Below, in pieces: positions 16,700-58,337 of a stretch of 60,781 bases of DNA; position 1 is the first letter of the stretch, and each line of letters opens with the position of its first letter. The position numbers and the translations under genes were made by a program. This DNA comes from Solirubrobacterales bacterium (GTDB lineage: Bacteria; Actinomycetota; Thermoleophilia; Solirubrobacterales; 70-9). The DNA lies in the NCBI GenBank assembly GCA_019694145.1, contig JAIBCJ010000004.1, positions 1 to 60,781 of the forward strand. Direction: 5' to 3'. Under the pieces are notes generated by a model that ran no database searches, was not told where the DNA came from, and saw nothing but the letters and a program-made list of their open reading frames with translations.

Positions 16700-16717
16700 A
16701 ACCTAGACTTCTCCCCG

Positions 16718-42419: not shown

Positions 42420-42436
42420 TCAGATTGGAAGACACG

Positions 42437-44507: not shown

Positions 44508-44524
44508 TACTAACGTTTGTAGTA
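44508..44524 (+). promoter_or_regulatory. BlaI box 1
   Basis: TACTAAC-GTT-TGTAGTA, a 7-3-7 dyad close to TACTACA-N3-TGTAGTA. It lies in the 28-base gap between the PBP gene and ccdA and ends one base before the ccdA ATG, so either ccdA is leaderless or its true start is slightly downstream (GTG 44532 or 44562). Confidence 0.75.
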
Positions 44525-44525
44525 G

Positions 44526-45284
44526 ATGGATGTGCTTGCCGTATCTGACCCGGCCGCCGGGGTGGGACTCGTAGCTGCCCTTTTTGCCGGGATGGTCTCG
44601 TTCCTGTCCCCTTGCGTTCTCCCTCTGGTCCCGGGCTATTTGTCGGCGGTCTCGGGTGTGTCGGTGGACGAACTCGAGGATGCGGGGTGGCGTCGGGTCC
44701 TCTTGCCGAGCCTCTGCTTCGTCGCGAGCTTCTCCCTGATCTTCATCTTGCTTGGGCTCACGGCAACGAAACTCGGGTCGATTCTCAGCGACAACCGCCA
44801 GCTTCTCGACAAGATCGCGGCGGCGTTGATCATTGCGATGGGGGTCTTGTTCGTCGCATCCTTCTTTGTGGTCAAGCTGAACCGGGAGTGGCATGTAGAC
44901 GCATTGATGTCTCGCGCGGGCAAGGGAGGGCCAGTCGTGGCCGGCGCCGCCTTCGCCTTTGCCTGGACTCCATGCATCGGGCCGACGCTGGGGGCGATTC
45001 TGTCGGCTGCTTCATTGTCGGGATCTGCCGCGAAAGGGGCACTGCTTCTCGCGGTCTACTCGGCAGGCCTGGCAGTCCCCTTCCTCCTTACGGTCTTGGC
45101 CTTCGACCGAATGACTTCGGCCTTCAGTGTGGTCAAGCGGCACTACGAACTGATCGTTGCCGCGGGCGGTCTCATCCTGATCGCTATGGGGATCCTGATC
45201 TGGACGGGTGAACTGTTCCGCATCAACATCGAGATGCAGAAGTGGATGAGTCAGGTCGGTCTCGATTTCTGGAGCAGCATCTAA
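44526..45284 (+). CDS. ccdA: CcdA-type thiol-electron membrane transporter
   Basis: 252 residues, six helices, CcdA/DsbD-gamma family, which passes electrons from cytoplasmic thioredoxin to extracytoplasmic thiols, for example in cytochrome c maturation. The redox pair is visible: FLSPCVLPLVPG (C30) and FAWTPCIGPTLG (C150), each in a helix with the flanking prolines characteristic of the family. The ATG directly abuts BlaI box 1. It fits with the DsbA, VKOR and thioredoxin-fold lipoprotein encoded further down under other BlaI boxes. Confidence 0.92.
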   Translation: MDVLAVSDPAAGVGLVAALFAGMVSFLSPCVLPLVPGYLSAVSGVSVDELEDAGWRRVLLPSLCFVASFSLIFILLGLTATKLGSILSDNRQLLDKIAAALIIAMGVLFVASFFVVKLNREWHVDALMSRAGKGGPVVAGAAFAFAWTPCIGPTLGAILSAASLSGSAAKGALLLAVYSAGLAVPFLLTVLAFDRMTSAFSVVKRHYELIVAAGGLILIAMGILIWTGELFRINIEMQKWMSQVGLDFWSSI

Positions 45285-45318
45285 CTACGATTATTCGCAC
45301 ATGTATTAGGATGTTGGA

Positions 45319-45684
45319 ATGAAGCCCGGAACAGATGCGTGCGAACTGCTTTGTCTCGACCTCCCGAAGGCTGAAAGTGTTCGGTCGTCTATTCCCGACG
45401 CTGAAGTTCTCGAAAGTGGGGCTTCGTTCGCGAAGGCATTGGCTGATCCGAACCGGTTGAGCATTGCCCTGGCACTGCGCGATGGCGGAGAGATGTGCGT
45501 CTGTGACCTCTCCTGGATCGTCGCGAGGCAGGACAAGCTGGTTTCGCATCACCTTCGTCTGCTTCGGTCCGCTGGACTTGCCACGTCGCGCAAGAACGGG
45601 AAGATGGTGCTCTACACGCTGACACCTGCCGGGAATCACATGGTGGAAGCCGTTCTTGCGATCGCTGCCCCGGTGAACTCATGA
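45319..45684 (+). CDS. cadC: CadC-type ArsR-family repressor
   Basis: 121-residue metal-sensing repressor. It has the CadC cysteine set: an N-terminal pair in DACELLCLD (C8, C12) and C-V-C in GEMCVCDLSWIV, which together form the thiolate Cd/Pb/Bi site in CadC. The helix-turn-helix is DKLVSHHLRLLRSAGLA. The N-terminal extension of about 35 residues before the helices is as in CadC. TTGGA lies just before the ATG. Its stop overlaps the ATPase start (ATGA). A TTCGCACATGTAT stretch upstream (45293-45305) may be part of its operator. Confidence 0.9.
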   Translation: MKPGTDACELLCLDLPKAESVRSSIPDAEVLESGASFAKALADPNRLSIALALRDGGEMCVCDLSWIVARQDKLVSHHLRLLRSAGLATSRKNGKMVLYTLTPAGNHMVEAVLAIAAPVNS

Positions 45685-47912
45685 GCACCGAGCTTCTCGA
45701 TCGGCCCGACGTTGAAGCAGCGGAGAGTGACGCGGTCAGATTCCGCGTGGGCGGGATGGATTGCGCGGCCTGCGCAGCCACGGTGGCCAAAGTCGTGGAA
45801 GCGGTCGACGGAGTCGAAACCGCAGAAGTCTCGATCGGCAACGGGACCATGCGCGTCGAAGGATCGGCCCCTGCTGAAGCCATCCAAGAGGCCGTGAGAA
45901 GGGTGGGGTACTCGGCCCAGCTCGCTTCGAGTCTGCGCGGACCATCCGTCCCCTTCTGGCGGCAGAGCGCGAGAACGTTTTCCACGACGATGGCCATCGG
46001 GACGCTGATTGCGGCAGTCGTTGCTTCTCTCACGACGCTTCCGGACGAAGTTAGTTCGATGCTGTTCCTCCTGACCCTGGCCCTCGGGGGATGGGGAATC
46101 GTCATTTCGGCGGTTGCCGCGATGCGTCAGCGGACACTCGACATGAACGTGCTCATGGCGCTCGCATCGATCGGAGCCTTGGCGATCGGCGATTACGCGG
46201 AAGCCGCATGGGTGATCGTTCTGTTCGCGGTCGGCAACGCCCTGGAGGAACTGGCACTGGAAAGAAGCCGGCGTTCCGTGGAGTCGCTTCGCGAACTGGC
46301 CCCGTCGACCGCCAACGTGATCGCCGGTGGCGAGGAGATTCCGACCCCCGTCGCCGAGATTCGCACCGGGTCTTCGATCGTGATCAGGCCGGGTGAACGT
46401 CTTCCGCTGGATGGCGAGGTGATCTCCGGGGCTTCCAGCGTCGACGAGTCGACTCTGACCGGAGAATCGGTACCTGTCGACAAGGCGGTCGGAGCCAGCG
46501 TCTTCGCGGGCACCCTGAACGTCGCTGGCTCGTTCACGATGCGATCCACGTCGGGATCGGAGGACTCGACTCTTGCGCAAGTAACAAGCCTGGTTTCCGA
46601 CGCTCAGGGAAGCCGCGCGCCATCGGAGCGATTCGTCGACCGCTTCGCCCGGATCTACACCCCGATCGTTCTTCTCGCCGCGGTCCTGGTGGCCGTAATC
46701 CCCACGTTGGCCGGAGGCTCGTTCGACGAGTGGTTCTACAGGGGGCTCGCGCTACTCATCGTTGCCTGCCCGTGCGCCCTCGTGATCTCGGTGCCGGCGA
46801 GCGTGGTGGCAGCAATTGGTGGCTCGGCCAAGATCGGCGTCTTGGTCAAGGGAGGCCAGGTGCTCGAGGACCTGGCGTCGATCCAAGCCTTGGCGCTCGA
46901 CAAGACTGGAACCCTGACCAAGGCCAGGCCCGAACTCGTGACCATCGCGACCGTCGCTGAAATGGATGACGATGAAGCCCTCGCGCTCATGGCTGCTGTC
47001 GAGAAGGGATCGGAACATCCCCTCGGGCAGGCCCTGGTCCGTTCGGCTTCTGATGCGAAATCTGTCGAGCTCGAGGTCTCGGGGTTTGAAGCCCTTCCCG
47101 GTCGCGGAGCAGTGGCCACGGTTTCCGGAAGAAGCCTGTGGGCCGGCGGCCCCCGACTCGCGGCCGAACATGACGCAGAGCTCCCGGTCGAGTTCGAAAA
47201 CCTGCAGGCAAGGGGCGAGACGGTCGTCGCCCTGGGTGAGGGATCCGACGTGCTGGCAATCTTCGGGTTGGCGGATGAGCCCCGGATCGAAGCCTCGTCG
47301 GCGGTCGAGGGACTCAGGGACCGGGCCGGAATCAGCGAGGTAGTAATGCTCACCGGCGACAGCGAGCCCGTGGCCGCGGCCATCGCGAAGAGGAGCGGCA
47401 TCACTCGCTGGCGGGCAGGTCTTCTACCCGAAGACAAACTCGACGAGGTCATACGTCTCGAGAGGGAGGTCGGACCCACCGCAATGGTCGGCGATGGGGT
47501 CAACGACTCACCCGCCCTCGCCGGGTCGACCGTCGGGGTCGCGATGGGTGCGGCCGGAAGCGACGTCGCACTCGACTCGGCCGATGTCGCCCTGATGGGT
47601 GACGATCTCATGCGACTTCCCGACGCGATCAATCACTCACGATGGGCGGTCCGGATCATGAAGCAGAACGTGTCCGTTTCCCTGATCACCAAGGCGATCT
47701 TCGTGGTCCTGGCGCCCCTTGGCTTCGTGAGCCTGATCACCGCAATCGCCGTCGACATGGGTGTCTCACTGCTCGTGACCCTGAACGGTCTACGTTTGCT
47801 GCGTCGGCCAGCGACCCATTCCCTGAGAGAGACCCCCGGGGATCCAGGTCCAGTCGCGGTGGCGGCGACCGCGGAAGGTGACGTATGCGAAGAGGACTGC
47901 TGTTCACCCTAA
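45681..47912 (+). CDS. cadA: Zn/Cd/Pb-exporting P1B-type ATPase
   Basis: 743-residue P1B-2 ATPase that pumps divalent soft metals out of the cytoplasm. Order: an N-terminal HMA domain with GMDCAAC (C28, C31), helices, the actuator TGES in STLTGESVPV, the transmembrane metal site C-P-C in VACPCALVIS (about 363-365), phosphorylated Asp in DKTGTLT (D407), H-P of SEHPLGQAL, GDGVNDSPAL near residue 604, and the last-helix Asp in AVDMGVSLLVTLNGLRLLR, which is typical of ZntA/CadA rather than CopA. A Cys-rich tail CEEDCCSP ends it. The stop lies 1 base before BlaI box 2. Confidence 0.94.
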   Translation: MSTELLDRPDVEAAESDAVRFRVGGMDCAACAATVAKVVEAVDGVETAEVSIGNGTMRVEGSAPAEAIQEAVRRVGYSAQLASSLRGPSVPFWRQSARTFSTTMAIGTLIAAVVASLTTLPDEVSSMLFLLTLALGGWGIVISAVAAMRQRTLDMNVLMALASIGALAIGDYAEAAWVIVLFAVGNALEELALERSRRSVESLRELAPSTANVIAGGEEIPTPVAEIRTGSSIVIRPGERLPLDGEVISGASSVDESTLTGESVPVDKAVGASVFAGTLNVAGSFTMRSTSGSEDSTLAQVTSLVSDAQGSRAPSERFVDRFARIYTPIVLLAAVLVAVIPTLAGGSFDEWFYRGLALLIVACPCALVISVPASVVAAIGGSAKIGVLVKGGQVLEDLASIQALALDKTGTLTKARPELVTIATVAEMDDDEALALMAAVEKGSEHPLGQALVRSASDAKSVELEVSGFEALPGRGAVATVSGRSLWAGGPRLAAEHDAELPVEFENLQARGETVVALGEGSDVLAIFGLADEPRIEASSAVEGLRDRAGISEVVMLTGDSEPVAAAIAKRSGITRWRAGLLPEDKLDEVIRLEREVGPTAMVGDGVNDSPALAGSTVGVAMGAAGSDVALDSADVALMGDDLMRLPDAINHSRWAVRIMKQNVSVSLITKAIFVVLAPLGFVSLITAIAVDMGVSLLVTLNGLRLLRRPATHSLRETPGDPGPVAVAATAEGDVCEEDCCSP

Positions 47913-47913
47913 C

Positions 47914-47930
47914 TACTACAGAACGTCGTA
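47914..47930 (+). promoter_or_regulatory. BlaI box 2
   Basis: TACTACA-GAA-CGTCGTA, 7-3-7 dyad. A -10-like TAGGGT follows 9 bases behind. It starts the first of two tandem box-plus-hairpin units offset by exactly 134 bases. Confidence 0.75.
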
Positions 47931-47948
47931 GGAGGTGCTAGGGTCGAA

Positions 47949-48046
47949 ATCCCGTTGGCCTGGGCATCGACGCTTTGAACGAGCAACTCTCCGCTTCTGG
48001 CCTCTTGGTGCGGAGTAGTGGACATCCTTGTCCGGGTCAACGGGAT
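47949..48046 (+). other. Structured leader unit 1 (12-bp closing helix)
   Basis: ATCCCGTTGGCC (47949-47960) pairs with GGTCAACGGGAT (48035-48046), one G-U included, closing a 74-base interior that can form smaller stems (CTCCGC/GCGGAG and GGACA/TGTCC). The helix begins 18 bases behind BlaI box 2. The same helix recurs in unit 2 with compensatory changes, so an RNA role is likely. No coding potential seen. Confidence 0.5.
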
Positions 48047-48047
48047 C

Positions 48048-48064
48048 TACTACAGACTGTCGTA
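48048..48064 (+). promoter_or_regulatory. BlaI box 3
   Basis: TACTACA-GAC-TGTCGTA, 7-3-7 dyad. A good -10 hexamer TATGAT (48073-48078) follows 9 bases behind, the same distance as in unit 1. It marks a second regulated promoter directly after helix 1. Confidence 0.8.
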
Positions 48065-48083
48065 GGGATCGCTATGATCTGGA

Positions 48084-48139
48084 TCCCGCCGGCCCACCCA
48101 CAATTCGGATGGGCGCCCCCAGCCGAAGGGCCGGCGGGA
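48084..48139 (+). other. Structured leader unit 2 (12-bp closing helix)
   Basis: TCCCGCCGGCCC (48084-48095) pairs perfectly with GGGCCGGCGGGA (48128-48139); an inner CCCA/TGGG stem is possible. No T-tract follows, so it is not a standard terminator. Relative to unit 1, two T-A pairs in the helix have become C-G pairs on both strands. Confidence 0.5.
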
Positions 48140-48157
48140 CCCCATAAAGGGAACTGC

Positions 48158-48174
48158 TACTACTTGTCGTAGTA
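48158..48174 (+). promoter_or_regulatory. BlaI box 4
   Basis: TACTACT-TGT-CGTAGTA, 7-3-7 dyad, 110 bases behind box 3 and about 10 bases ahead of the c-di-AMP riboswitch. Third box in front of the operon that encodes BlaI itself. Confidence 0.8.
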
Positions 48175-48184
48175 TGTGAGAAAT

Positions 48185-48316
48185 CCAATTAGCCGAATCC
48201 GGTACCAACCGGATCGGGGGACCCACTTGAGGCCATCAAGTCTCTGGGGCGAATCGCACTCTGCGTAGCGCATCTCTTTCAGCGCGAGCCCGTCAGCTAA
48301 CCCCGAAGGCGCGAGA
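48185..48316 (+). ncRNA. Cyclic-di-AMP riboswitch (ydaO-yuaA type)
   Basis: Matches the conserved parts of the c-di-AMP riboswitch in order: GCCGAATCC, CGGGGGACCCAC, GGGGCGAATC, and the very characteristic 3' block GAGCCCGTCAGCTAACC followed by CGAAGGCG. It ends about 13 bases ahead of the M23 peptidase start. In actinobacteria this riboswitch usually precedes cell-wall hydrolase genes and switches them off when c-di-AMP is high, which fits. Here it lies directly behind BlaI box 4, so the operon has both transcription-level and RNA-level control. Confidence 0.9.
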
Positions 48317-48328
48317 AAGAGAGAAGGA

Positions 48329-48871
48329 ATGAATCACGATTCCGTCATCGGACGGTTGGCCATTAGGGCGTTATTGACCTTTGGAGCTCTAGGAATGTTC
48401 TCCGGCATCGCTACCGCCTCAACGGGAGGTCTGTCACCGGCTTCTCCGAGCCCGGCTCCGGCCAAGGGCGCGTTCCCGATCCGTGGTTCAGTCACCTGGG
48501 GCGACGGACTAGGAGCGGGCCGGGGGCATCAGGGCCAGGATCTTCTCGCCAAATGCACCAGGCCGGTGGTCGCGGCTCAGACCGGAAGAGTTCGTCTTGT
48601 CGACTACCAGGCTGACGGGGCTGGCAACTATGCCGTGATTCGCGGGACGTCATCGAAGTTCGACTACGTGTACATGCACATGCTTCGCACACCGGAAATC
48701 CGGGCGGGCCAACTCGTAAAGGCGGGCCAGCGAATCGGACTGGTCGGGTCGACCGGACGCTCGACCGCCTGTCATCTCCATTTTGAGATGTGGACGCGAC
48801 CGGGCTGGTACCGCGGTGGAAGCGTGAGCAACCCGACGCCCTACCTCCGTAAGTGGGGTTCAGCTCGCTAA
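48329..48871 (+). CDS. Secreted M23-family peptidase
   Basis: 180 residues with a signal peptide (LAIRALLTFGALGMFSGIATAS). Zinc endopeptidase of the LytM/M23 fold: H-x3-D in GRGHQGQDLLAK (H67, D71), MHM near 116-118, and H-x-H in CHLHFEMW (H149, H151). A full set, so probably active on peptidoglycan cross-bridges. AGAAGGA precedes the ATG. First gene of the operon behind the c-di-AMP riboswitch; the next gene starts inside its 3' end. Confidence 0.92.
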   Translation: MNHDSVIGRLAIRALLTFGALGMFSGIATASTGGLSPASPSPAPAKGAFPIRGSVTWGDGLGAGRGHQGQDLLAKCTRPVVAAQTGRVRLVDYQADGAGNYAVIRGTSSKFDYVYMHMLRTPEIRAGQLVKAGQRIGLVGSTGRSTACHLHFEMWTRPGWYRGGSVSNPTPYLRKWGSAR

Positions 48872-49848
48872 CCCCGGGCAGACCATGGAGCCTCGTTCTT
48901 CTGGCGGCGCTGACTGTGCTGGCTCTAGTCGGTTGCGGCGATTCGAACAGCGAGATGAGCGAGAAGGATGCTGCTCCTGCCATTGACTTTCCAACGGCCA
49001 AGAACACCTCGATCGAACAGCTCGCCGCCATGGCGTCACCGACCGACATTCAGTTCGCACCTTCGGGAAAGGTGGTCGAGCCAGGAAATAATCGCTATGG
49101 GTTCGCGGCATTCGACTCGCAGGGACAACAACAGACGGATCTCGATGTCGCGCTGTATGCGACGAGCGGACCGAAGTCGAAAGTTCTAGGGCCCTTCCCG
49201 GCCAAGGTCGAGTCGCTGGAAACCGAACCTTCGTTTCGAGCCCAGACCACCTCCCAGGATCCCGGCGCCGCCAAGGCGGTCTACGTCGTACCGAACCTCA
49301 ACTTGCCCAAGGCAGGCAACTGGTACCTGCTCGCGCTCGCCAAGAGTGAAACCGGCTTCGTCGGCGCTCAGCTTCCGAACGTAGTCGTCCGCAAATCGAA
49401 AGTCGTCCGCCCCGGTGAGAAAGCCCCGGCAGTCTCGACACCCACGGCGGCCGACGTCGGGGGAAACCTCGAGAAGATCGACACCCGCATCCCGCCAGAC
49501 TCACTCCACGCTGCCGACTTCTCCTCGGTCGTCGGGGAGAAGCCAGTGATCCTGCTCTTTTCAACTCCCCAGCTCTGCGAAAGCCGCGTCTGCGGTCCGG
49601 TGGTGGACGTCCAGGCCCAGGTCGCCGAGGAAACCGGCGATGACGTGGAGTTCATTCACTCAGAGATCTACAACGACAACGACCCCAACAAGGGTGTCAA
49701 CCGGCAGGTTCAGGCATTCCGATTGCCCACCGAGCCCTGGCTCTTCGCCATCGATGAGGACGGGATCGTCCGGAAGCGGATCGAGGGCGCCTTCGGTCTG
49801 GGTGAGCTTCGCGAAGCAGTCCAATCCATTCGATCGGAAAGCCAGTGA
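48853..49848 (+). CDS. Lipoprotein with C-terminal thioredoxin-like domain
   Basis: 331 residues. Signal with a lipobox-like LALVGC (Cys about 28). Residues 30-185 form a beta-rich extracellular domain (FAAFDSQGQQQTDLDVALYA, GNWYLLALAKSETGFVGAQLP). Residues about 205-331 look like a thioredoxin fold with KPVILLFSTPQLCESRVCGPVVDVQAQ, where the Cys pair is C-x3-C instead of the usual C-x2-C, and a cis-Pro-like LPTEPWLFAIDEDG. The C-x3-C spacing resembles Sco-type metallochaperones. GTG at 48853 overlaps the peptidase gene. Likely an exported redox or copper-handling protein. Confidence 0.7.
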   Translation: MGFSSLTPGRPWSLVLLAALTVLALVGCGDSNSEMSEKDAAPAIDFPTAKNTSIEQLAAMASPTDIQFAPSGKVVEPGNNRYGFAAFDSQGQQQTDLDVALYATSGPKSKVLGPFPAKVESLETEPSFRAQTTSQDPGAAKAVYVVPNLNLPKAGNWYLLALAKSETGFVGAQLPNVVVRKSKVVRPGEKAPAVSTPTAADVGGNLEKIDTRIPPDSLHAADFSSVVGEKPVILLFSTPQLCESRVCGPVVDVQAQVAEETGDDVEFIHSEIYNDNDPNKGVNRQVQAFRLPTEPWLFAIDEDGIVRKRIEGAFGLGELREAVQSIRSESQ

Positions 49849-50801
49849 TCCGGCCTGCCGTCGGTAACCTCTCTCGAGTGCCTGCGCGCATTTCCGCACC
49901 AATCGTCTTCTCGGCCCTTTGTCTGCTGGGCACGCTGACCGTGGCCCTTTCGGCGGTCGCGCTGATCGGAACCTTCATCAGTGGTGACGCCCCGTGGGCT
50001 CCCGTTCAGGCTTGCTGTGAAGCAGCCATCGCAAAGGTTTCGTTCGGGTGGCTCCTCTTGGTGGCGGTTGGACTGATCTCGATTGTCGCGTTGGTTCGCC
50101 TGGCCTTCAGCAGTTGGCTGACGATCAAGGCCAACGCGCGTGTTCACTCCCTTAGAAAGCTGGCTTCGACAGAGAAGGTCGCGGGCCACGATTGCCTGGT
50201 TCTGGAGGACGCTCGACCGCTTGCGTTCTGCGGCGGGCTGGTTCGCCCGCGGGTCTTCCTCAGCCGAAACCTCATCAACGAACTAGAGCCGGCAGAGCTT
50301 GCTGCCGTCGTTGCTCATGAGGCCCATCATCAGAACCGGCGCGATCCCCTGCGGAACTCGATCACACGCGTCATGGCATACGGGTTCTTCTTCCTGCCAA
50401 TGCTTCGAGAGTTCGGTCAGAAGTGTGTCGAACGCTCCGAAATTGCCGCCGACCAGGCTGCGGTAGCCGGCGGTGAGAGCGAACGAAAGGCACTTGCGAG
50501 CGCCCTCCTCTCGCTCCATGGACGCGAAAGCGAGGGAGTGGCAGTGTCCTTGTCACCCGATCGGATTGGAGTACTCGCGGGTGAGAAGCCTTCCTGGATT
50601 CCAAGTAGGAACGGAGCCCTCTTGAGCATGTCCGCTCTGGGGGTCTTGCTGGCCGGCCCGGTACTGGCAGCCGAACTCGTTACTCGCACACCGGTAGGCA
50701 TCGAGGCTCTGGGACTTCACGTTTGCCTCGCCGCGCTCATCGTCGCTCCTCTTCTGCTTTCGGCGGGATTCGCATGGACCCGTCCCCAGGTGCGGATCTG
50801 A
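49845..50801 (+). CDS. M56-family membrane metalloprotease (BlaR1-like, no PBP sensor)
   Basis: 318 residues with four predicted helices (about 17-45, 65-90, and two near 265-310). Zinc protease motif HEAHH (H158, E159, H162) with the third ligand Glu in ERSEIAADQ (E199). This equals the protease part of BlaR1/MecR1, which cleaves the BlaI repressor, but the C-terminal penicillin-binding sensor is missing; only short loops face outside. GTG at 49845 overlaps the lipoprotein stop; its stop overlaps the blaI start. The lipoprotein or a peptidoglycan fragment might act as sensor, which is inference. Confidence 0.9.
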   Translation: MIRPAVGNLSRVPARISAPIVFSALCLLGTLTVALSAVALIGTFISGDAPWAPVQACCEAAIAKVSFGWLLLVAVGLISIVALVRLAFSSWLTIKANARVHSLRKLASTEKVAGHDCLVLEDARPLAFCGGLVRPRVFLSRNLINELEPAELAAVVAHEAHHQNRRDPLRNSITRVMAYGFFFLPMLREFGQKCVERSEIAADQAAVAGGESERKALASALLSLHGRESEGVAVSLSPDRIGVLAGEKPSWIPSRNGALLSMSALGVLLAGPVLAAELVTRTPVGIEALGLHVCLAALIVAPLLLSAGFAWTRPQVRI

Positions 50802-51190
50802 TGACCAACGCTGAGAACCCACCTGCCCTCTCGGACCTCGAACGTGAAGTCATGGAACAGGTCTGGTCGGCATCGGAAGAAGTGTCGGTACGAGACGTCC
50901 TGAACGGGATCAACGAAGCGAACGAGAAGCAGCGCGCCTACACAACCCTGATGACCATCCTTTCCCGCCTTGAAGCAAAGGGAATGGTCACCAAGCGCAG
51001 GAAGTCGAAGTCCGACCTCTTCACCCCGGTGCTCTCCCGAAGCGACTACCTCGAGTCCCGAGCAAAGGTCGAAGTCGACGCACTGGTCGGCGAGTACGGC
51101 GAGATCGCCCGTGCCTTGTTCGTCCGTGAGATCGAAGACACCGATCCCGACGCAGCCAAGAAACTCAAAAAGCTGATCGACAAGTCCTAA
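50801..51190 (+). CDS. blaI: BlaI/MecI-family repressor
   Basis: 129-residue winged-helix dimer of the BlaI/MecI/CopY family. Motifs: LSDLEREVMEQVWSASEEVSVRDVLNGI, AYTTLMTILSRLEAKGMVTKRRKSKSDLFTPVLSRSDY, then a helical dimer domain. No Cys at all, so it is not a copper-binding CopY. ATG at 50801 overlaps the M56 stop. BlaI box 5 follows its stop by 1 base. Seven matching boxes in the window make it the likely regulator of at least five transcripts. Confidence 0.94.
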   Translation: MTNAENPPALSDLEREVMEQVWSASEEVSVRDVLNGINEANEKQRAYTTLMTILSRLEAKGMVTKRRKSKSDLFTPVLSRSDYLESRAKVEVDALVGEYGEIARALFVREIEDTDPDAAKKLKKLIDKS

Positions 51191-51191
51191 T

Positions 51192-51208
51192 TACTACAGC
51201 TTGTAGTA
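51192..51208 (+). promoter_or_regulatory. BlaI box 5 (perfect)
   Basis: TACTACA-GCT-TGTAGTA, a perfect 7-3-7 inverted repeat, 18 bases ahead of the DsbA-like gene start. TACA/TGTA is the known core of BlaI/MecI operators. The best representative of the seven. Confidence 0.9.
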
Positions 51209-51226
51209 GCATCGGCTGCCAAGTCG

Positions 51227-51865
51227 ATGTCGGACAACGTCAAACTCTCAATCGCCCTCGTGCTCGTGGGCGCACTCGGACTTCTGGTCTACCTCAGTCT
51301 CGGAAACGACACTCCGGAAGGATCCGCAAATCCCGAGGTCACTCGCGCGGACTCTCACTACCTGACCAAGGCGCCGGACGACAAGGTCACGATCGTAGAG
51401 TTCCTCGACTTCGAATGCGAAGCCTGCAAGGCCCAGTTCCCGACGATGGAGCGAATCCGCGAGGAATACGACGGCAGGATCAACCTAGCTATCCGGTACT
51501 TCCCACTCGGCGGTCATCAGAACGGAATGAACGCCGCCCTCGCGGTGGAGGCGGCCTCCAAGCAGGGAGCCCTCGAGGACATGTACATCAAGATGTACGA
51601 AACCCAGGCCGAGTGGGGTGAGTCACCAAACTCGAAGGCGGACCTCTTCGCCGAGTACGCCCAGGAACTCGGACTCGACATGGACCAATTCGAGGCCGAT
51701 GTGAAAGATCCTGAAACGAGAAAGCGGGTCGAGAAAGACCAGGCTGACGGTGTAGGCCTCGGGGTCCAGGGAACGCCGACGATCTATCTGAACGGCGAAG
51801 AGTTGCCGACCATGCCGTCCTACGAAGATCTCAAGCAGCGCATCGACGCCCTACTCGCGGAGTAG
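51227..51865 (+). CDS. DsbA-like thiol oxidoreductase, membrane-anchored
   Basis: 212 residues: one N-terminal helix (LSIALVLVGALGLLVYLSL), then a DsbA-type thioredoxin fold. Active site C-E-A-C in FECEACKAQFP (C64, C67), helical insert with HQNGMNAALAVEAASKQG, and the cis-Pro strand GVQGTPTIYLNGE. It oxidises or isomerises disulfides of exported proteins. First gene of the box-5 operon and followed by VKOR, its probable re-oxidant. Confidence 0.92.
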   Translation: MSDNVKLSIALVLVGALGLLVYLSLGNDTPEGSANPEVTRADSHYLTKAPDDKVTIVEFLDFECEACKAQFPTMERIREEYDGRINLAIRYFPLGGHQNGMNAALAVEAASKQGALEDMYIKMYETQAEWGESPNSKADLFAEYAQELGLDMDQFEADVKDPETRKRVEKDQADGVGLGVQGTPTIYLNGEELPTMPSYEDLKQRIDALLAE

Positions 51866-51867
51866 TA

Positions 51868-52497
51868 GTGAAGGTCAGTTCAGCGGGAACTGCCACCCAG
51901 GCGCCTGCGGAGTTCATTCAACGCGTCACGCCATGGGTCGTCACGATCACATCGATAGTGGCCTTCGCGGCCGCGGCGGTCCTGATGGTCGAGAAGATCA
52001 TCCTGCTCGGGGACCCGACCTACGTCCCAACTTGTTCGATCAATCCGGTTCTCTCCTGCGGCTCGATCATGAAAAGCGACCAGGCCGAAGCGTTCGGCTT
52101 TCCGAACCCGCTTCTCGGCCTTGCCGGGTTCGGTCTGATGACCACCTTTGGCGCAGCAACCCTCGTCGGCGTAAGAGCTCCGAGGTTCGCGTGGCTCCTG
52201 GCGCAGGCTGGCGCGGTGTTCGCGTTCGGCTTTGTCTGCTGGTTGATCTTTCAGAGCCTCTACCGGATCGAAGCGCTGTGCCCCTACTGCATGGTGGTCT
52301 GGTTGGCCACCTTCACCCTCGTCTGGTACCTGACGCTGGCCAACTTCTCGAGTGGACGAATCAAGTTGCCAGAGCGCCTTCGTCCCCTCCTTGGATTCGC
52401 GACGAAATACCACGCCGTACTACTCACGGGAGCGGTCCTGATCGTCGTCGCCCTGATCGCCGAAGCCTTCTGGTCCTACTGGAGCACCTTGCCGTGA
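51868..52497 (+). CDS. VKOR-family membrane oxidoreductase
   Basis: 209 residues, about five helices. Vitamin K epoxide reductase family, which re-oxidises DsbA with quinone, replacing DsbB in actinobacteria. Loop cysteines C56 and C64 in PTCSINPVLSCGSIM, followed by GFPNPLLG, and the active C-P-Y-C (C138, C141) in EALCPYCMVVW. GTG at 51868 starts 2 bases behind the DsbA-like gene, so coupled translation is likely. Confidence 0.95.
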   Translation: MKVSSAGTATQAPAEFIQRVTPWVVTITSIVAFAAAAVLMVEKIILLGDPTYVPTCSINPVLSCGSIMKSDQAEAFGFPNPLLGLAGFGLMTTFGAATLVGVRAPRFAWLLAQAGAVFAFGFVCWLIFQSLYRIEALCPYCMVVWLATFTLVWYLTLANFSSGRIKLPERLRPLLGFATKYHAVLLTGAVLIVVALIAEAFWSYWSTLP

Positions 52498-52525
52498 CCC
52501 ACAAAGAAACGAGTTGAAGACCCAC

Positions 52526-52990
52526 ATGAATCCGAAGACCACCCGCATGCTCGCCGCCGGCGCCGTTGTCGTCGTTGCGCTCGCGCTTCTACTTATCGTC
52601 AGGCCCGGCGACTCCGACAACGGCAACCCTGACGAGAACGCCGACCAGGGACAGGCGACATCCAAGACCACCGGGAACACCGGGCCCACTTCGGCCCCGC
52701 AAAGCAAGCCGCCCCAGCCTGAGAAGCCGGTCGTTCCCGTTTACCGGGTTGTCGACGGACAGCCCGCGGGCGGAGTTCAGAAGCTCGAGGCCAATGAGGG
52801 CGACAACATTCGATTCGTGGTCAAGTCCGATGTTGATGACGAGGTCCACGTCCACGGATTCGATGTCAGCGAACCCGTAGGTCCCGGCAAGCCGGCCCGG
52901 TTCGACTTCAAAGCCGATTTCACCGGAGTCTTCGAAATCGAACTCGAGAACTCAGCAGTCCCGATCATCGAGCTCCAGGTCAACCCTTGA
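52526..52990 (+). CDS. Membrane-anchored cupredoxin-like protein, copy B
   Basis: 154 residues. One helix (LAAGAVVVVALALLLIV), a Pro/Gln/Asn/Gly-rich linker (about 25-70) and a cupredoxin-like domain: NEGDNIRFVVKSDVDDEVHVHGFDVSEPVGPGKPARFDFKADFTGVFEIELE. It shares the H-V-H-G-(Y/F)-D and V-G-P-G-K-P blocks with copy A at 36823, while the linker has diverged fully. No Cys/Met ligands. ATG at 52526 is preferred to the TTG at 52514. It overlaps the membrane-protein gene by 4 bases (TTGA). Confidence 0.75.
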   Translation: MNPKTTRMLAAGAVVVVALALLLIVRPGDSDNGNPDENADQGQATSKTTGNTGPTSAPQSKPPQPEKPVVPVYRVVDGQPAGGVQKLEANEGDNIRFVVKSDVDDEVHVHGFDVSEPVGPGKPARFDFKADFTGVFEIELENSAVPIIELQVNP

Positions 52991-54375
52991 TCAGTCTGCC
53001 CCTCGCGCATGCCCTGGTCTCGCGGGGTGACCTGCCGATTCCTGTTTGGCTTTTCGCGTGGGGCGCCGGCGTAGTCCTTGTTGTCTCATTTTTTGCGCTG
53101 GCCTCGGCCTGGCGCAAACCCAGATTCGAAGATGCTCCGGGTCGACCCGCAGCGACCTGGCTTTCAGCGACAGCAAACTCTTCGGCCGTTCAGTTCCTCT
53201 CAGGTCTGATCGGCGTCCTTCTACTTGCGGTTGTCCTCTACGCGGGGATCGAAGGAACCGAAGCTGCCGACCGAAACTTCTCTCTCACCTTCGTCTTCGT
53301 AACCGTCTGGCTCGGCTTCCCCGTCCTGAGTGTGGTCTTCGGGAACGTCTTCGCCGCGTTCTCTCCGTGGAGGGCAATCGGCAGGGCTTATGGATGGCTT
53401 GCGCAGCGACTGGCGCCGGGAGCCGTAAGGCACGTCGAGTACCCGGAGAAGGTCGGCAGGTGGCCGGCGGCGGTCGGACTCGTCGCCTTCGTCTGGCTCG
53501 AGATCATCTACGGAGCGACGGGCGCGGCCGTGGTTCTCTCCCCCGAAATCGTGGCCAAGGCGACGGTCATCTACTCGGTCTACACCCTGGTGATGATGGG
53601 CGTGTTCGGCGTTGAGAAATGGAGCTCACGTGGAGAGTTCTTCTCGGTCTACTTCGGCATGTTCGCCTCGATGTCGTCGTTTCGAAAGCGGGAAGGAAAG
53701 CTCGAGCGTCGACGTTGGCTCTCGGGAACCACCGATTGGGCAAACGTGCCGGGATCGCTGGCGCTCGTCGTTTCTGCCATCGGTGTGACCACCTTCGACG
53801 GTGCGCAGGAAGGTGCGCTGAAAACCCCGATCGAGTGGACGCAGGAACGAATCGGTGACCTGGGGTTCGCGGCAACAGTCTCGGTCCGGGCTGGCGACAC
53901 CATCTTCCTGCTGATCACGATCGGAATCGTGGCACTCATCTACCTCCTCGGAGTCAAGGGAATGACCCGGGTGGATGCGGCGCCACCGTTCAAGGTGCTT
54001 CGTAGCCGCTTTGCTCACACACTCATTCCGATCGCGCTGGCATACCTCGTGGCCCACTACTTCAGTCTCTTCGTGTTCCAGGAGCAAGCCCAGTTCACCT
54101 TTCTGCTCTCAGATCCGCTGGGGGATGGATCGAATCTGTTCGGGACAGCGACATCGGGGATCGACTACACCCTGATCGGGCCCGAACTTGTCTGGTACGT
54201 CCAGGTGGGGGCACTCATCGCCGGCCACGTGACTGCGCTCGTCCTCGCTCATGACCGCGCACTTCTGATCTGGCCGGACTACCGACTGGCGACCAGATCC
54301 CAGTACTGGATGCTCGCGGTCATGCTCTGCTTTACGAGTCTGGGCCTCTTCCTGCTCTCATTTGCGAACCAGTAG
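52987..54375 (+). CDS. Polytopic membrane protein, module copy B
   Basis: 462 residues, about ten helices, paralogue of the protein at 35434-36819. Shared blocks: LAHALVSRGDLPIPVWLFAWG, EGTEAADRNFSLTFVFVTVWLGFPVLSVVFGNVFAAFSPWR, VAFVWLEIIYG, FGVEKWSSRGEFFSVYFGMF, FAHTLIPIALAYLVAHYFSLFVFQEQ and TRSQYWMLAVMLCFTSLGLFLLSFAN. TTG at 52987 overlaps the end of the cupredoxin-like gene. The same order (cupredoxin, then membrane protein) in both copies shows they function as a unit. Possible roles are metal, heme or redox handling in the membrane. Confidence 0.7.
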   Translation: MISLPLAHALVSRGDLPIPVWLFAWGAGVVLVVSFFALASAWRKPRFEDAPGRPAATWLSATANSSAVQFLSGLIGVLLLAVVLYAGIEGTEAADRNFSLTFVFVTVWLGFPVLSVVFGNVFAAFSPWRAIGRAYGWLAQRLAPGAVRHVEYPEKVGRWPAAVGLVAFVWLEIIYGATGAAVVLSPEIVAKATVIYSVYTLVMMGVFGVEKWSSRGEFFSVYFGMFASMSSFRKREGKLERRRWLSGTTDWANVPGSLALVVSAIGVTTFDGAQEGALKTPIEWTQERIGDLGFAATVSVRAGDTIFLLITIGIVALIYLLGVKGMTRVDAAPPFKVLRSRFAHTLIPIALAYLVAHYFSLFVFQEQAQFTFLLSDPLGDGSNLFGTATSGIDYTLIGPELVWYVQVGALIAGHVTALVLAHDRALLIWPDYRLATRSQYWMLAVMLCFTSLGLFLLSFANQ

Positions 54376-54428
54376 AACGGGCGCTTCATTGCAGGGCTAC
54401 ACCTCGCCGGCTCAACCCAAGATCTAAC

Positions 54429-54445
54429 TACTACAGTCCGTAGGA
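54429..54445 (+). promoter_or_regulatory. BlaI box 6
   Basis: TACTACA-GTC-CGTAGGA, 7-3-7 dyad with two mismatches in the right half. It ends 2 bases before the TTG start of the coiled-coil M23 protein, like box 1 at ccdA. Confidence 0.75.
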
Positions 54446-54447
54446 GC

Positions 54448-55668
54448 TTGGCTCCCCTTCCCTCGAAACTCACTTCTCCACTCGAACCGTGGAGACGACA
54501 CATTCCCCTGCTCGCCGCTTCCGCCTGCCTGCTCCTCGTGGTGCTCATGTCGGGAAGTTCATCGGCAGCCGACACGCAATCGAAGCTGGACAAGGCAGAG
54601 AAGAAGATCGAAGAAGGCCAACAGCGGGAGGGAGTCCTGACCGAGAAACTTGATCAGCTCGGTGAGCGGGTCGACTCAATGCAGGCCGCGGTCGACGCAC
54701 TGCGAGAGGCCGAACAAGAAGCGGCGGCGAAACTCCAGCAGGCAGAAGCTGACTTGAAACTCGCGATCGAACGACTCCAGACTTCCCTCGAAGAGCTCCG
54801 CGAAACTCGAAGACGTCTGAAGGTGTCCCTTCAGGTCCTCAGACAGAGGTTGGTGGACATCTACGTCTCAGGTACACCAAGCATTGCCTCGATGGTGCTG
54901 GCCGCCAACGAGTACAGCGATCTGGTCGAGATGGGACCGTACCTCGAAGCGATCCAGTCGCGAGACGAGTCTCTCGTTCAGAGAGTCAGGGAACTGAAGA
55001 ACGAGGCGCGCAAGATCGTGGAGGCCCGACGCGACTCAAAGGAAACCATCCAAACTTCTCGCGACTCGATCGCCGCCGAGACCGCGCGATTGGCGAGTGC
55101 TCGAAGTGAAACCGAATCCCAGGTCGCATCTCTTGCGTCGGCGAAGGCCGCGAGCGAAGAGGCACTGAACGAGGTTCAGGACGGAATCGCTCAGGAAGAG
55201 GAAGTCGCGGCGGACCTGCGCGAGAAGCTCACCAAGGAGCTGGGTACAGCCACGTCGGTCCCGTTCTCCGTGGGACCGGCGTCAACACCCAGTTCCAACA
55301 GCATGATCTGGCCGATCGACGGAACTCTTACTTCGCCGTTCGGCCCAAGATGGGGCAGAACGCATGAAGGCCTGGACATCGCGGCCCCCGCCGGCACACC
55401 AATCGCCGCCGCGGCATCGGGGACGGTAGTGCTCATGCAGTCAGAAGCAGAGAGCGGCGGCTACGGGCTCTTCACCTGCGTGGATCATGGCGGTGGGTTG
55501 TCCACCTGCTACGCCCATCAGTCCGAATTCGGAACATCGGTCGGGGCATCTGTCAAGCAGGGGGAAGTGATCGGGTACGTCGGAAACACAGGCAACAGCT
55601 TTGGTGATCACGTTCACTTCGAAGTACGGATCAATGGGGCGGCAACCGACCCGATGGCTTACCTCTAG
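54448..55668 (+). CDS. Exported coiled-coil M23 peptidase (EnvC/NlpD-like)
   Basis: 406 residues. A hydrophobic signal (HIPLLAASACLLLVVLMSGSSSAA) is followed by a long coiled coil (about 38-125 and 165-260, Glu/Lys/Arg-rich with few Gly/Pro), a short linker, and an M23 domain: SPFGPRWGRTHEGLDIAAPAGTPI (H-x3-D) with HVHFEVR (H-x-H) near the end. The EnvC-like architecture suggests regulated peptidoglycan cleavage, perhaps at division. TTG at 54448 immediately follows BlaI box 6, so a leaderless or slightly downstream start is possible. Convergent with the CDF gene with a 4-base overlap. Confidence 0.9.
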   Translation: MAPLPSKLTSPLEPWRRHIPLLAASACLLLVVLMSGSSSAADTQSKLDKAEKKIEEGQQREGVLTEKLDQLGERVDSMQAAVDALREAEQEAAAKLQQAEADLKLAIERLQTSLEELRETRRRLKVSLQVLRQRLVDIYVSGTPSIASMVLAANEYSDLVEMGPYLEAIQSRDESLVQRVRELKNEARKIVEARRDSKETIQTSRDSIAAETARLASARSETESQVASLASAKAASEEALNEVQDGIAQEEEVAADLREKLTKELGTATSVPFSVGPASTPSSNSMIWPIDGTLTSPFGPRWGRTHEGLDIAAPAGTPIAAAASGTVVLMQSEAESGGYGLFTCVDHGGGLSTCYAHQSEFGTSVGASVKQGEVIGYVGNTGNSFGDHVHFEVRINGAATDPMAYL

Positions 55669-56612
55669 CTTGAGGCGGTCAAGCCATCCGGCCGGGTGAT
55701 CTCCAGAGGCTTCCCATCGCCCGCGTGCTCAAGTTGAAGCGTTGAGTGCTCGATCTCGAACTGCTCTTTGAGCAACGAGTCCAACTCGAGTCTGACTCGA
55801 TGGCAATCAAGGTCGGCGCCAACCAGCACGTGAGCTGAGAGCGAGGGAAAGCCGGAAGTGATCTGCCAGATGTGCAGATCGTGGATTTGCTCAACTCCCG
55901 CGACTCCGGCCATGGCCATACCTACTTCCTGGGTATCGATTCCCTTGGGGGCGGCCTCGAGCAAGACATCCACCGACTCCTTCAAGACTGACCAGGCGCT
56001 CGCCACGATGAGGATGGAGATCAGGATCGACACGATGGGATCGATCGGCTCCCAGCCCGTCAAAAGGATGACGCCGGCGGCAATGATCACGCCGACGGAA
56101 CCGAGCAGGTCACCCAAGACGTGCCGAAGGGCAGCTCGAACGTTCAGACTCTCACCGCCTCCCTTCCAAAGGACCAGGAAGGCAACCACGTTGATGATGA
56201 GGCCGAGGACGGCGATCGCCATCATTCCGCCGCCCATCACTTCAACGGGATCGTCGAGTCTTCCGATCGCTTCGTACACCACCCAAAGGGACACCAAGAC
56301 GAGAAGCACGCCGTTGACCAAAGCCGCCAGAATCTCGGCGCGCTTGTATCCGAAGGTCCGCTTCGCCGTCGCGGGACGCGCAGCAATCGATACGGCGAAC
56401 AGGGCGAGAAAGAGCGAGAAGCTGTCGGAGAGCATGTGGCCCGCGTCAGCAAGTAGCGCGAGCGAACCCGTGATGACTCCGCCGACAGCCTCGGCGACCA
56501 TGAAGCCACCCGTCAACAAAGCGGCGATCAGAAGCGCCTTACGGTCAGCTCCCCGATAGGACCCGATCCCGTGGCTGTGACCCTCTTCGGAGTGATCGTG
56601 GTCGTGGCTCAT
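55665..56612 (-). CDS. CDF-family divalent metal exporter
   Basis: 315-residue cation diffusion facilitator, Zn/Cd/Co:proton antiporter. N-terminal His-rich tail (HDHDHSEEGHSHG), six helices with the metal site LLADAGHMLSDSFSLFLALFA (H-x3-D, helix 2) and ALRHVLGDLLGSVGVIIAA (helix 5, also H-x3-D), and a cytoplasmic domain with HDLHIWQITSGFPSLSAHVLV. Close to CzcD/ZitB. BlaI box 7 lies 21 bases upstream of its ATG, which places metal efflux in the BlaI regulon. Confidence 0.94.
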   Translation of the reverse strand: MSHDHDHSEEGHSHGIGSYRGADRKALLIAALLTGGFMVAEAVGGVITGSLALLADAGHMLSDSFSLFLALFAVSIAARPATAKRTFGYKRAEILAALVNGVLLVLVSLWVVYEAIGRLDDPVEVMGGGMMAIAVLGLIINVVAFLVLWKGGGESLNVRAALRHVLGDLLGSVGVIIAAGVILLTGWEPIDPIVSILISILIVASAWSVLKESVDVLLEAAPKGIDTQEVGMAMAGVAGVEQIHDLHIWQITSGFPSLSAHVLVGADLDCHRVRLELDSLLKEQFEIEHSTLQLEHAGDGKPLEITRPDGLTASS

Positions 56613-56633
56613 CTAGACGCGATTCTATCGACC

Positions 56634-56650
56634 TACTACAGCACGTCGCA
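56634..56650 (-). promoter_or_regulatory. BlaI box 7
   Basis: TACTACA-GCA-CGTCGCA as read on the plus strand, one well-conserved half and one weaker. It lies just ahead of the minus-strand CDF gene. Confidence 0.65.
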
Positions 56651-56868: not shown

Positions 56869-57510
56869 CTAGATTCGCTCGCGGTTTGGTCGGACCAATC
56901 CCGGGAGATTTCTCAGACGGGCCACGCTCCTGGCCCACCGTCCGGGGTCTTTCCGGATTTGCCTTTCGGGCTCGCGGGCGATCAGGTTCTCCCTGATCTC
57001 GCGAAGGCTGGCTCGAATCTCCTCTTCACTCAACTTCTCGAGCAGGTTCGAGAAATGACGGTCAATTGAGAACTCCAGTGGCAAGTCGTACTGCTGGAAA
57101 ACGAAGTAGGGATCCTTGATGTTGTCGCGAATCTCGCGGCCCGGTTCCTGGACGAGCTCAACTGGCTTCGCGTCGGGAGAAGCCTCAACGAGCTTGATCG
57201 CGACGTCAGCGAGCCTCGCGCCGCGAGGGAGCAGACTCGACTTTCGCCGATATACAGATTTCTCGTACGCCTCCATGTGGAGGTCGAGACTCAACGGGAA
57301 GCTCGTATCGAGCCAACCTGCACCAATCATTTCCACAATGCGCTTCCTCAATAAGAAAGGGGCCAGGTGCGGAATCAGACAGATGATTTGCGCATCCGTC
57401 AGATCGGGCGAAGTGGATCTCCCGTGCGCTCGAAGGATCTCGACGGAACCCGGTCGCTGGAACAGATCCCACTCTTCGGGCTCGAGGACAACCGGAAATC
57501 GTGGCGCCAT
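56869..57510 (-). CDS. Uncharacterised protein with HxlR-like N-terminus
   Basis: 213 residues. The first 25 residues (VVLEPEEWDLFQRPGSVEILRAHG) align with the starts of the two following small regulators (EIWRVFSRRGTIQILLAL and EEWRVFQRRGTPQILLLL), but the rest has diverged: helices with LIPHLAPFLLRKRIVEMIGAGWL take the place of the winged helix, and 110 residues of charged helical sequence follow. It ends with an Arg-rich tail. Probably a distant member of the same family with a new C-terminal domain. Function unknown. Confidence 0.6.
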   Translation of the reverse strand: MAPRFPVVLEPEEWDLFQRPGSVEILRAHGRSTSPDLTDAQIICLIPHLAPFLLRKRIVEMIGAGWLDTSFPLSLDLHMEAYEKSVYRRKSSLLPRGARLADVAIKLVEASPDAKPVELVQEPGREIRDNIKDPYFVFQQYDLPLEFSIDRHFSNLLEKLSEEEIRASLREIRENLIAREPERQIRKDPGRWARSVARLRNLPGLVRPNRERI

Positions 57511-57546
57511 CTGTCGAGATTATGACGCGGACTCGGTCTTGTCTAA

Positions 57547-57894
57547 CTATGCCGCGTTGGCTTCGAGCTCACCCGACTTACGGGCGGCATTCTCAAGCAC
57601 GTTTGCGGCGACGGAGATCTCGCGGCCCAGGTCGGTGAGGCTGTACTCGGACGTCATGGGTGGCCCGTCAAACACGCGTCGCTGAACGGCTCCCAGTTCC
57701 CGCAGTTCGTTCAAACGAGTCCCGAGCACCTGTCGGGCAATCGACGGGAACTCAGCATCGATGTCCCTTGATCTCATGGCATCTCTTCTGGAGAGAGCTA
57801 GAAGGATCTGAATGGTTCCGCGGCGCGAGAAAACGCGCCAGATCTCGGGCTCGTCGAATCGGCGAAGTTGTCGATTATCGCTAGCCACCATCAT
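57547..57894 (-). CDS. HxlR-like winged-helix protein 1
   Basis: About 115 residues. Winged-helix pattern FDEPEIWRVFSRRGTIQILLALSRRDAMRSRDIDAEFPSIARQVLGTRLNELRELGAVQRRVFDGPPMTSEYSLTDLGREI resembles HxlR/PadR-type regulators. No cysteine sensor. I take ATG at 57894; a TTG at 57936 would add 14 residues without a ribosome site. Most similar to the protein at 57981-58337, from which it evidently arose by duplication. Confidence 0.8.
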   Translation of the reverse strand: MMVASDNRQLRRFDEPEIWRVFSRRGTIQILLALSRRDAMRSRDIDAEFPSIARQVLGTRLNELRELGAVQRRVFDGPPMTSEYSLTDLGREISVAANVLENAARKSGELEANAA

Positions 57895-57980
57895 CAAAGG
57901 ATACGCCCTATCAGTGGCTGAAGTTCGAGATAGCAATGCCGCGATTTAGTTCGAACTGAGAAGTGAAATCGGGAGGGAAG

Positions 57981-58337
57981 CTAGGGCCGGGGAACGTCAA
58001 CGCCGGCGTCTTCTTCTGCGAGCGGCGTGGCGCTGACGACGCGGTTCAGCGCCTCAGCGACTTCTGCCAAAGCTGTCCCCTTCTCGGTCACGCGATATCT
58101 GGAAATCATCGGGGGACCTTCTTCTACCTCTCGTTCGAGGATCCCGAGTTCCCTTAGTTCGTTGAGCCTGGTTCCCAGAATCTGGCGCTTGATAGTTGGT
58201 ATCGCCGCGTCGATCTCGCTGCTTCTCAGCGACGAACCATCGCTGAGCAATAGGAGAATTTGAGGCGTTCCACGCCTCTGGAACACACGCCACTCCTCTG
58301 GCTCGTCGGGTCGCTGGGCTGCTCGAGGTTTTTCCAT
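57981..58337 (-). CDS. HxlR-like winged-helix protein 2
   Basis: 118 residues. Same fold as its neighbour: EEWRVFQRRGTPQILLLLSDGSSLRSSEIDAAIPTIKRQILGTRLNELRELGILEREVEEGPPMISRYRVTEKGTALAEV. The shared block (I-x-R-Q-(V/I)-L-G-T-R-L-N-E-L-R-E-L-G) is nearly identical in both, while flanks differ. No ligand-binding extension. May regulate the cluster itself. Confidence 0.82.
   Translation of the reverse strand: MEKPRAAQRPDEPEEWRVFQRRGTPQILLLLSDGSSLRSSEIDAAIPTIKRQILGTRLNELRELGILEREVEEGPPMISRYRVTEKGTALAEVAEALNRVVSATPLAEEDAGVDVPRP

What the first reader, a model, noticed from the sequence alone, without database searches (positions are those of the whole stretch)
44508..56650. A seven-box BlaI regulon joining thiol oxidation, peptidoglycan cleavage, cupredoxin and metal efflux
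Seven intergenic 17-bp dyads of the form TACTACA-N3-(T/C)GTAGTA lie at 44508, 47914, 48048, 48158, 51192, 54429 and 56634; I saw none in the other 48 kb. They precede ccdA, the M23/lipoprotein/M56/blaI operon (three boxes), dsbA-VKOR-cupredoxin-membrane protein, an EnvC-like M23 protein and a CDF exporter. BlaI with an M56 protease is known for beta-lactamase control, but this target set is not. It suggests a stress response that rebuilds exported disulfides, the wall and metal balance together.
Basis: partly seen in the sequence, partly recalled or inferred. Interest (0 to 1): 0.88.

Follow-up and report, generated by a model that had tools for sequence, protein, structure and literature searches.

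The report
Metal-and-wall island run by BlaI
A soil-type actinobacterium appears to use a BlaI switch, a type best known from penicillin resistance, to turn on in one block a set of spare genes for metal export, disulfide handling and cell-wall cutting; the DNA evidence is strong, but what triggers the switch is not known.

Summary
The seven 7-3-7 boxes are real, intergenic and far above chance. The next-best site in the window scores 11.9; the boxes score 18.8 to 26.5. In the 2.55 Mb own genome every site with at most one mismatch lies in this segment.

The same boxes precede the same genes in four congeners although gene order differs. Thirteen congeners without the island have none. Island copies of ccdA, dsbA and envC carry a box (13 of 13); other copies of these genes do not. 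Around BlaI in 40 contigs, nearly all from the same order, 54 of 61 strong sites are intergenic. So a BlaI/M56 regulon is well supported, though binding is inferred.

Box 44508 probably also drives arsR-zntA. A c-di-AMP riboswitch (48181-48326) lies behind box 48158, a stack kept in four congeners. The 'cupredoxin' has no Cys, so it is unlikely to be a type-1 copper protein.

The M56 protein matches BlaR1 in fold but lacks the penicillin-sensor domain, and BlaI lacks Cys. Relatives' boxed genes include CopC/CopD, Lgt and thioredoxin-like proteins. I read this as an accessory metal/thiol-stress envelope island; the signal is unproven.

New variant of a known kind.

The parts
44508..44524 (+). 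BlaI box 1, 1 bp before the ccdA start codon
   Evidence: box 3 bp from ccdA also in G010
44526..45284 (+). ccdA (DsbD_TM), island copy; a second ccdA without a box lies at C186
45319..45684 (+). ArsR-family repressor (HTH_5)
45681..47912 (+). ZntA/CadA-type metal P-type ATPase with HMA domain
   Evidence: Cd-family TIGR01512 475 bits over its cut-off; Cu family below its cut-off
47914..47930 (+). BlaI box 2
   Evidence: TANNNT 8 nt downstream
47939..47944 (+). Possible -10 element TAGGGT
48048..48064 (+). BlaI box 3
48073..48078 (+). Possible -10 element TATGAT
48158..48174 (+). BlaI box 4, last before the riboswitch; possible -10 TAGTAT at 48170-48175
48181..48326 (+). c-di-AMP riboswitch (RF00379) in the leader of the M23-lipoprotein-M56-blaI operon
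   Evidence: 89.7 bits, gathering 38; same stack in L040, L041, L042, L064
48329..48871 (+). M23 peptidoglycan endopeptidase
48853..49848 (+). Lipoprotein with a thioredoxin-like end and conserved C-x4-C
   Evidence: weak Pfam match, E 0.005
49845..50801 (+). M56 membrane metalloprotease, 318 aa, HEXXH, no PBP sensor domain
50765..51190 (+). blaI repressor (Penicillinase_R); coding start approximate, 50765-50774
51192..51208 (+). BlaI box 5, perfect dyad, before dsbA
   Evidence: before dsbA in G006, G010, G015
51227..51865 (+). dsbA-like thioredoxin; this ortholog is found only in G000, G006, G010, G015 of 18 congeners
51868..52497 (+). VKOR
52514..52990 (+). Cupredoxin-like protein without Cys
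52987..54375 (+). Membrane protein with no Pfam or NCBIfam family; extra copy of a widespread gene of the order
54429..54445 (+). BlaI box 6, before envC
   Evidence: conserved in G006, G010, G011, G015
54448..55668 (+). EnvC-like M23 protein (start TTG 54448 or later)
56634..56650 (-). BlaI box 7, before CDF
   Evidence: box between arsR and CDF in G010
55665..56612 (-). CDF cation efflux protein

Best explanation
An accessory envelope metal- and thiol-stress island controlled by one BlaI-M56 pair. Inferred working: BlaI dimers bind TACTACA-N3-YGTAGTA boxes laid over or next to the -10/start region and hold five transcription units silent: ccdA-arsR-zntA, M23-lipoprotein-M56-blaI, dsbA-VKOR-cupredoxin-like-membrane protein, envC and CDF. 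The M56 protease senses an envelope signal, most likely a toxic metal or the thiol state it disturbs, and inactivates BlaI. The units then come on together: metals are exported (ZntA, CDF), exported thiols are reduced or re-oxidised (CcdA, DsbA-VKOR, thioredoxin-like lipoprotein), and the wall is trimmed (M23, EnvC). A c-di-AMP riboswitch adds a second gate on the M23 unit, which here also contains the regulator. Shown by sequence: the boxes, their conservation, their link to the island, the riboswitch and the domain make-up. Inferred: binding, repression, proteolytic induction and the signal.
For: Boxes far above background; sites with at most 1 mismatch in the own genome only here. Same gene set boxed in G006, G010, G015 and G011 despite reshuffled order. 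Sites with at most 1 mismatch occur in G000, G006, G010, G011, G015 and in none of 13 other congeners; with the strict grouping by close BlaI, 4/4 against 1/14. Gene-copy control: island ccdA 4/4, dsbA 4/4 and envC 5/5 boxed; no other fetched copy of these genes boxed. Order-wide: 61 strong sites in 634 kb around BlaI, 54 intergenic; 1 site in 645 kb elsewhere. BlaI matches M. tuberculosis BlaI and B. licheniformis BlaI structures; M56 best matches BlaR1 (Z 10.7), with invariant HEXXH, and has no penicillin-sensor domain. Riboswitch 89.7 bits, same stack in L040, L041, L042, L064. TANNNT follows the M23-unit boxes by 8-9 nt in four congeners and at two of the three window boxes. Relatives' boxed genes: CopC/CopD, Lgt, thioredoxin-like, cation efflux.
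Against: No binding or expression data. The metal reading rests on gene content; the ZntA operon carries its own ArsR, so metals could act there without BlaI. Some BlaI-M56 pairs in the order have no matching boxes (Solirubrobacter) or box other genes (PAP2, Ferritin_2), so the regulon is clade-specific. The island is clustered, so congener counts are few independent events, and grouping G011 with the positives was made after seeing the data.
Confidence: 0.72

Rival explanations
1. A BlaI wall-stress regulon: M56 senses wall damage or beta-lactam effects, and metal and thiol genes are passengers.
For: Two M23-type wall proteins are boxed; a penicillin-binding protein lies just upstream (42425-44497); c-di-AMP riboswitches control a wall peptidase in Corynebacterium (PMC9960051).
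Against: No penicillin-sensor domain on M56, no beta-lactamase among the boxed genes, no box before the PBP gene; relatives' boxed sets are rich in copper and thiol genes.
Confidence: 0.2
2. Another local regulator (ArsR at 45319, or the HxlR/MarR proteins at 57-58.8 kb) binds the boxes.
For: They are neighbours with DNA-binding domains.
Against: HxlR genes have no match in the fetched relatives' islands and ArsR none in L064, yet the boxes are there; boxes accompany BlaI across the order. The dyad resembles the BlaI/MecI operators of staphylococci (own knowledge).
Confidence: 0.04
3. The boxes are not regulatory: a repeat family or chance.
For: At 2 mismatches the genome-wide total is not above the reversed control; AT-rich patterns favour intergenic DNA (permuted matrices 59% intergenic).
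Against: Sharp score gap, conservation at orthologous promoters with reshuffled gene order, absence from other gene copies, count far above permuted matrices (1 of about 100 reaches it).
Confidence: 0.02

Closest known systems
BlaI-BlaR1 / MecI-MecR1 of staphylococci and Bacillus licheniformis
   Same: Winged-helix Penicillinase_R repressor, M56 membrane protease partner, inverted-repeat operators, box before its own operon.
   Different: No PBP sensor domain on M56, no beta-lactamase or PBP2a among targets, 3-bp spacer, five units of metal, thiol and wall genes.
Mycobacterium tuberculosis BlaI (Rv1846c)
   Same: Closest solved BlaI (2g9w); actinobacterial; regulon wider than beta-lactamase (atpH and sigC listed as members, PMC8265638; SigC linked to copper, PMC7924339).
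   Different: Targets are spread over the chromosome and include blaC and ATP synthase; here a single compact island.
BlaI-M56 pairs in plasmid metal-resistance regions (Mycolicibacterium aubagnense pJCM15296; Peribacillus asahii)
   Same: BlaI-M56 with metal ATPase, HMA protein, TlpA and the wall peptidase RipB nearby, or with ars, mer and multicopper oxidase genes.
   Different: Distant repressors (31-38% identity); operators not examined here; no DsbA-VKOR-CcdA set.
c-di-AMP riboswitch on nlpC of Corynebacterium glutamicum
   Same: c-di-AMP riboswitch before a wall peptidase that is also under transcriptional regulators (MtrA, GlxR, EsrR; PMC9960051).
   Different: Regulator here is a BlaI box, peptidase is M23, and the operon includes the BlaI-M56 regulator itself.
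CopY copper repressors
   Same: Same repressor superfamily (weak NCBIfam match).
   Different: BlaI here has no Cys at all, so no CopY metal site.

Membership tests
BlaI/MecI repressor family | Penicillinase_R winged-helix domain | tested here: met
   PF03965 76.6 bits, cut-off 22.6; 2g9w and 1p6r matches
BlaI/MecI repressor family | Adjacent M56 metalloprotease gene | tested here: met
   PF05569 59.6 bits; overlapping genes
BlaI/MecI repressor family | TACTACA/TGTAGTA-type operators before own operon and targets | tested here: met
BlaI/MecI repressor family | DNA binding and release by cleavage | not testable with these tools
   needs EMSA and cleavage assay
BlaR1/MecR1 beta-lactam sensor | BlaR1 membrane and protease fold with HEXXH | tested here: met
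   8exs Z 10.7, 201 residues; H158, E159, H162, E199 invariant
BlaR1/MecR1 beta-lactam sensor | C-terminal penicillin-binding sensor domain | tested here: not met
   318 aa, only M56 (and M48) Pfam matches
BlaR1/MecR1 beta-lactam sensor | Beta-lactamase or low-affinity PBP among targets | tested here: not met
   none among boxed genes; no other site with at most 1 mismatch in the genome, which is 81% complete
CopY copper repressor | C-terminal Cys-rich metal site | tested here: not met
   zero Cys in BlaI
c-di-AMP riboswitch RF00379 | Covariance-model score over gathering cut-off | tested here: met
   89.7 against 38 bits, full length
Cupredoxin (type-1 copper protein) | Cys/His copper ligands | tested here: not met
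   no Cys in eight homologs; only the HVHG motif is kept

The most novel reading that the evidence does not exclude
The sensor-less M56 is a new kind of envelope sensor. A conserved Cys in the predicted outer helix (C57) and one near the outer end of the last membrane helix (C294; a His nearby in the loci that lack it) bind a metal or form a disulfide, and this controls cleavage of BlaI. The riboswitch makes c-di-AMP a second input to the operon that holds the switch itself.
Probability: 0.25. Interest if true: 0.75.

Novelty: new variant of a known kind. Interest (0 to 1): 0.56.

Why it matters
Many actinobacterial BlaI-M56 pairs lack the penicillin-sensor domain, and what they sense is unclear. 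This island gives a compact, conserved regulon with clean operators, so the question becomes testable: one reporter and a panel of metals, thiol agents and wall drugs would answer it. If the metal/thiol reading holds, part of the BlaI family would be an envelope-stress system, with beta-lactam control as one use of it. The riboswitch stack also points to a link between c-di-AMP and metal or redox stress at the wall.

Tried and rejected
ArsR and HxlR as box binders: rejected, since they are missing from some boxed loci. CopY-type direct metal sensing: rejected, no Cys in BlaI. Cupredoxin as a copper protein: not supported. An order-wide fixed spacing between box and -10: only a weak excess at 6-9 nt over all boxes (8 of 85), though consistent at the M23 units. 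Fold of the 462-aa membrane protein: the model is decent (pLDDT 83) but Foldseek gives no convincing match. Gordonia plasmid p174 BlaI-M56 sits among unrelated genes. Paper searches found no description of a BlaI regulon of this content, but only open-access papers are held and Sala et al. 2009 could not be read. Svornostia abyssi (L170) has most of the same genes but only poor matrix hits, so its operator may differ.
Full report
Observation. A symmetric matrix made from them separates them cleanly: 18.8 to 26.5 bits against 11.9 for the best other site in the window apart from an overlapping register at 48155; each box is recovered at rank 7 or better when left out. In the own genome (233 contigs, 2.55 Mb, 81% complete) all sites with at most one mismatch fall in this segment, and only two more appear elsewhere at two mismatches. 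At two mismatches the reversed control pattern is as frequent genome-wide, so clustering and context carry the weight, not the raw count.

Relatives. A search of 101 genomes found BlaI orthologs of 57-63% identity in G006, G010 and G015 of the same genus, and more distant ones elsewhere. Sites with at most one mismatch occur in G000, G006, G010, G015 and G011 (which has a 32% BlaI) and in none of the 13 other congeners; in each of the five genomes all such sites lie on one contig. The boxes precede the same genes although the order is rearranged: ccdA, arsR-zntA, M23, dsbA, envC, CDF. In G006 and G015 a single box lies between the divergent arsR-zntA-M56-blaI and M23-lipoprotein units; in G015 and G011 the boxed ccdA unit begins upstream of ccdA, in G015 with a methyltransferase-like gene.

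Gene-copy control. ccdA, dsbA-like and envC-like genes exist as other copies in these and other congeners. All island copies (ccdA 4, dsbA 4, envC 5) have a box nearby; none of the other fetched copies has a site of 13 bits or more. This argues against the boxes being a general feature of these gene families.

Order-wide. Around BlaI in 40 contigs, nearly all of the same order (634 kb), 61 sites reach 13.5 bits and 54 are intergenic, while about 14% of the sequence is called intergenic. Permuted matrices average 2.8 sites, with one of about 100 reaching the real count, and their hits are 59% intergenic, so part of the intergenic bias is base composition. In 645 kb of genus and family DNA outside islands there is one site. 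First genes behind the boxes in these relatives include CopC/CopD fusions, Lgt, thioredoxin-like and DsbA-like proteins, cation efflux, a metal ATPase and UbiE-like methyltransferases, and in one subgroup PAP2 and Ferritin_2 proteins. DUF305 proteins lie in several of the islands.

The regulator. BlaI has a clear Penicillinase_R domain and matches M. tuberculosis BlaI (2g9w) and B. licheniformis BlaI (1p6r). It has no Cys, so it is not a CopY-type metal sensor. The M56 protein (318 aa) has invariant HEXXH and a downstream Glu, and its model (pLDDT 77) is best matched by BlaR1 (8exs, Z 10.7, rmsd 4.6, 201 residues). It has no penicillin-sensor domain. A Cys in a short helix between the first two membrane helices (C57) and one in the last membrane helix (C294) are nearly invariant among 21 relatives. 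In a wider set both are present in 24 rows, neither in 8, only C294 in 7 and only C57 in 3. Loci with both have ccdA nearby in 12 of 23 cases, against 0 of 15 for loci with neither or only C294. This pattern follows clades, so it is suggestive only.

Promoters and the riboswitch. Boxes 1 and 6 end within 3 bp of the ccdA and envC starts as called, and the same closeness is seen in relatives, which would fit leaderless or near-leaderless transcripts; this is inferred. Before the M23 unit a TANNNT element follows the box by 8-9 nt in four congeners and at boxes 47914 and 48048 of the window. Immediately downstream of box 48158 is a full-length c-di-AMP riboswitch (89.7 bits). The same stack of box, riboswitch and M23 occurs in G010, G006, G015 and G011, and a looser version in G004 next to a distant BlaI. 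c-di-AMP riboswitches are common in the genus (2-9 per genome), so what is new is the stack and, in the window and G010, the inclusion of the BlaI-M56 genes in the operon it leads. In C. glutamicum such a riboswitch lowers expression of a wall peptidase when c-di-AMP is high (PMC9960051).

Mechanism. The best-supported account is that BlaI represses five units from these boxes and M56 relieves repression on an envelope signal. The export proteins (ZntA, CDF), the thiol set (CcdA, DsbA, VKOR, the thioredoxin-like lipoprotein) and the wall enzymes (M23, EnvC) would then rise together. I give about 0.9 to BlaI being the binder, about 0.55 to a metal or thiol signal, and about 0.25 to sensing through the M56 Cys pair. 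A wall signal is the main rival.

Comparison with the known. It works like BlaI-BlaR1 in parts and DNA sites. It is a member of the BlaI repressor family, but not of the BlaR1 beta-lactam sensor class, whose sensor domain was looked for and not found. Wider BlaI regulons are known in M. tuberculosis (PMC8265638, PMC7924339), and BlaI-M56 pairs occur in plasmid metal-resistance regions, once beside RipB and TlpA. So this is a new variant of a known kind, notable for its compactness, its target set and the c-di-AMP layer.

Limits. No binding or expression data exist here; the window genome is incomplete; relatives are few independent lineages; my gene caller is simple and starts may be off; calling the congeners 'with island' was partly decided after seeing the boxes.

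Noticed in passing
window 48084-48140: Very stable hairpin (-44 kcal/mol over 48072-48160, z -4.0) between boxes 48048 and 48158, without a T run; possible attenuator or end of the zntA transcript.
   Followed up: partly
window 52987-54375 and 35434-36819: 462-aa membrane protein family, found in 86 of 101 genomes of the order sample, with no Pfam or NCBIfam family and no convincing PDB fold match; it travels with a Cys-free cupredoxin-like gene at both places.
   Followed up: partly
window 41508-42386: Caa3_CtaG family gene (cytochrome oxidase copper assembly) just upstream of the island.
   Followed up: no
L165: A record titled Bifidobacterium breve MAG carries an island like those of this order, with strong boxes and a c-di-AMP riboswitch; probably a mislabelled bin.
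   Followed up: no
L170: Svornostia abyssi J379, a named strain with a chromosome record, has most of the same gene set around a 36% BlaI but few good boxes; a possible experimental host with a different operator.
   Followed up: partly
L064: In G011 an integrase-like gene (15797-17362) and a DNA methyltransferase-like gene lie beside the island, suggesting mobility (judged by eye).
   Followed up: no
L154, L162, L163: A subgroup of BlaI-M56 loci whose M56 keeps only C294 boxes PAP2/haloperoxidase-like and Ferritin_2 genes instead.
   Followed up: no
window 56869-58813: Run of one unassigned, two HxlR-type and one MarR-type small genes after the CDF gene; no box among them.
   Followed up: no
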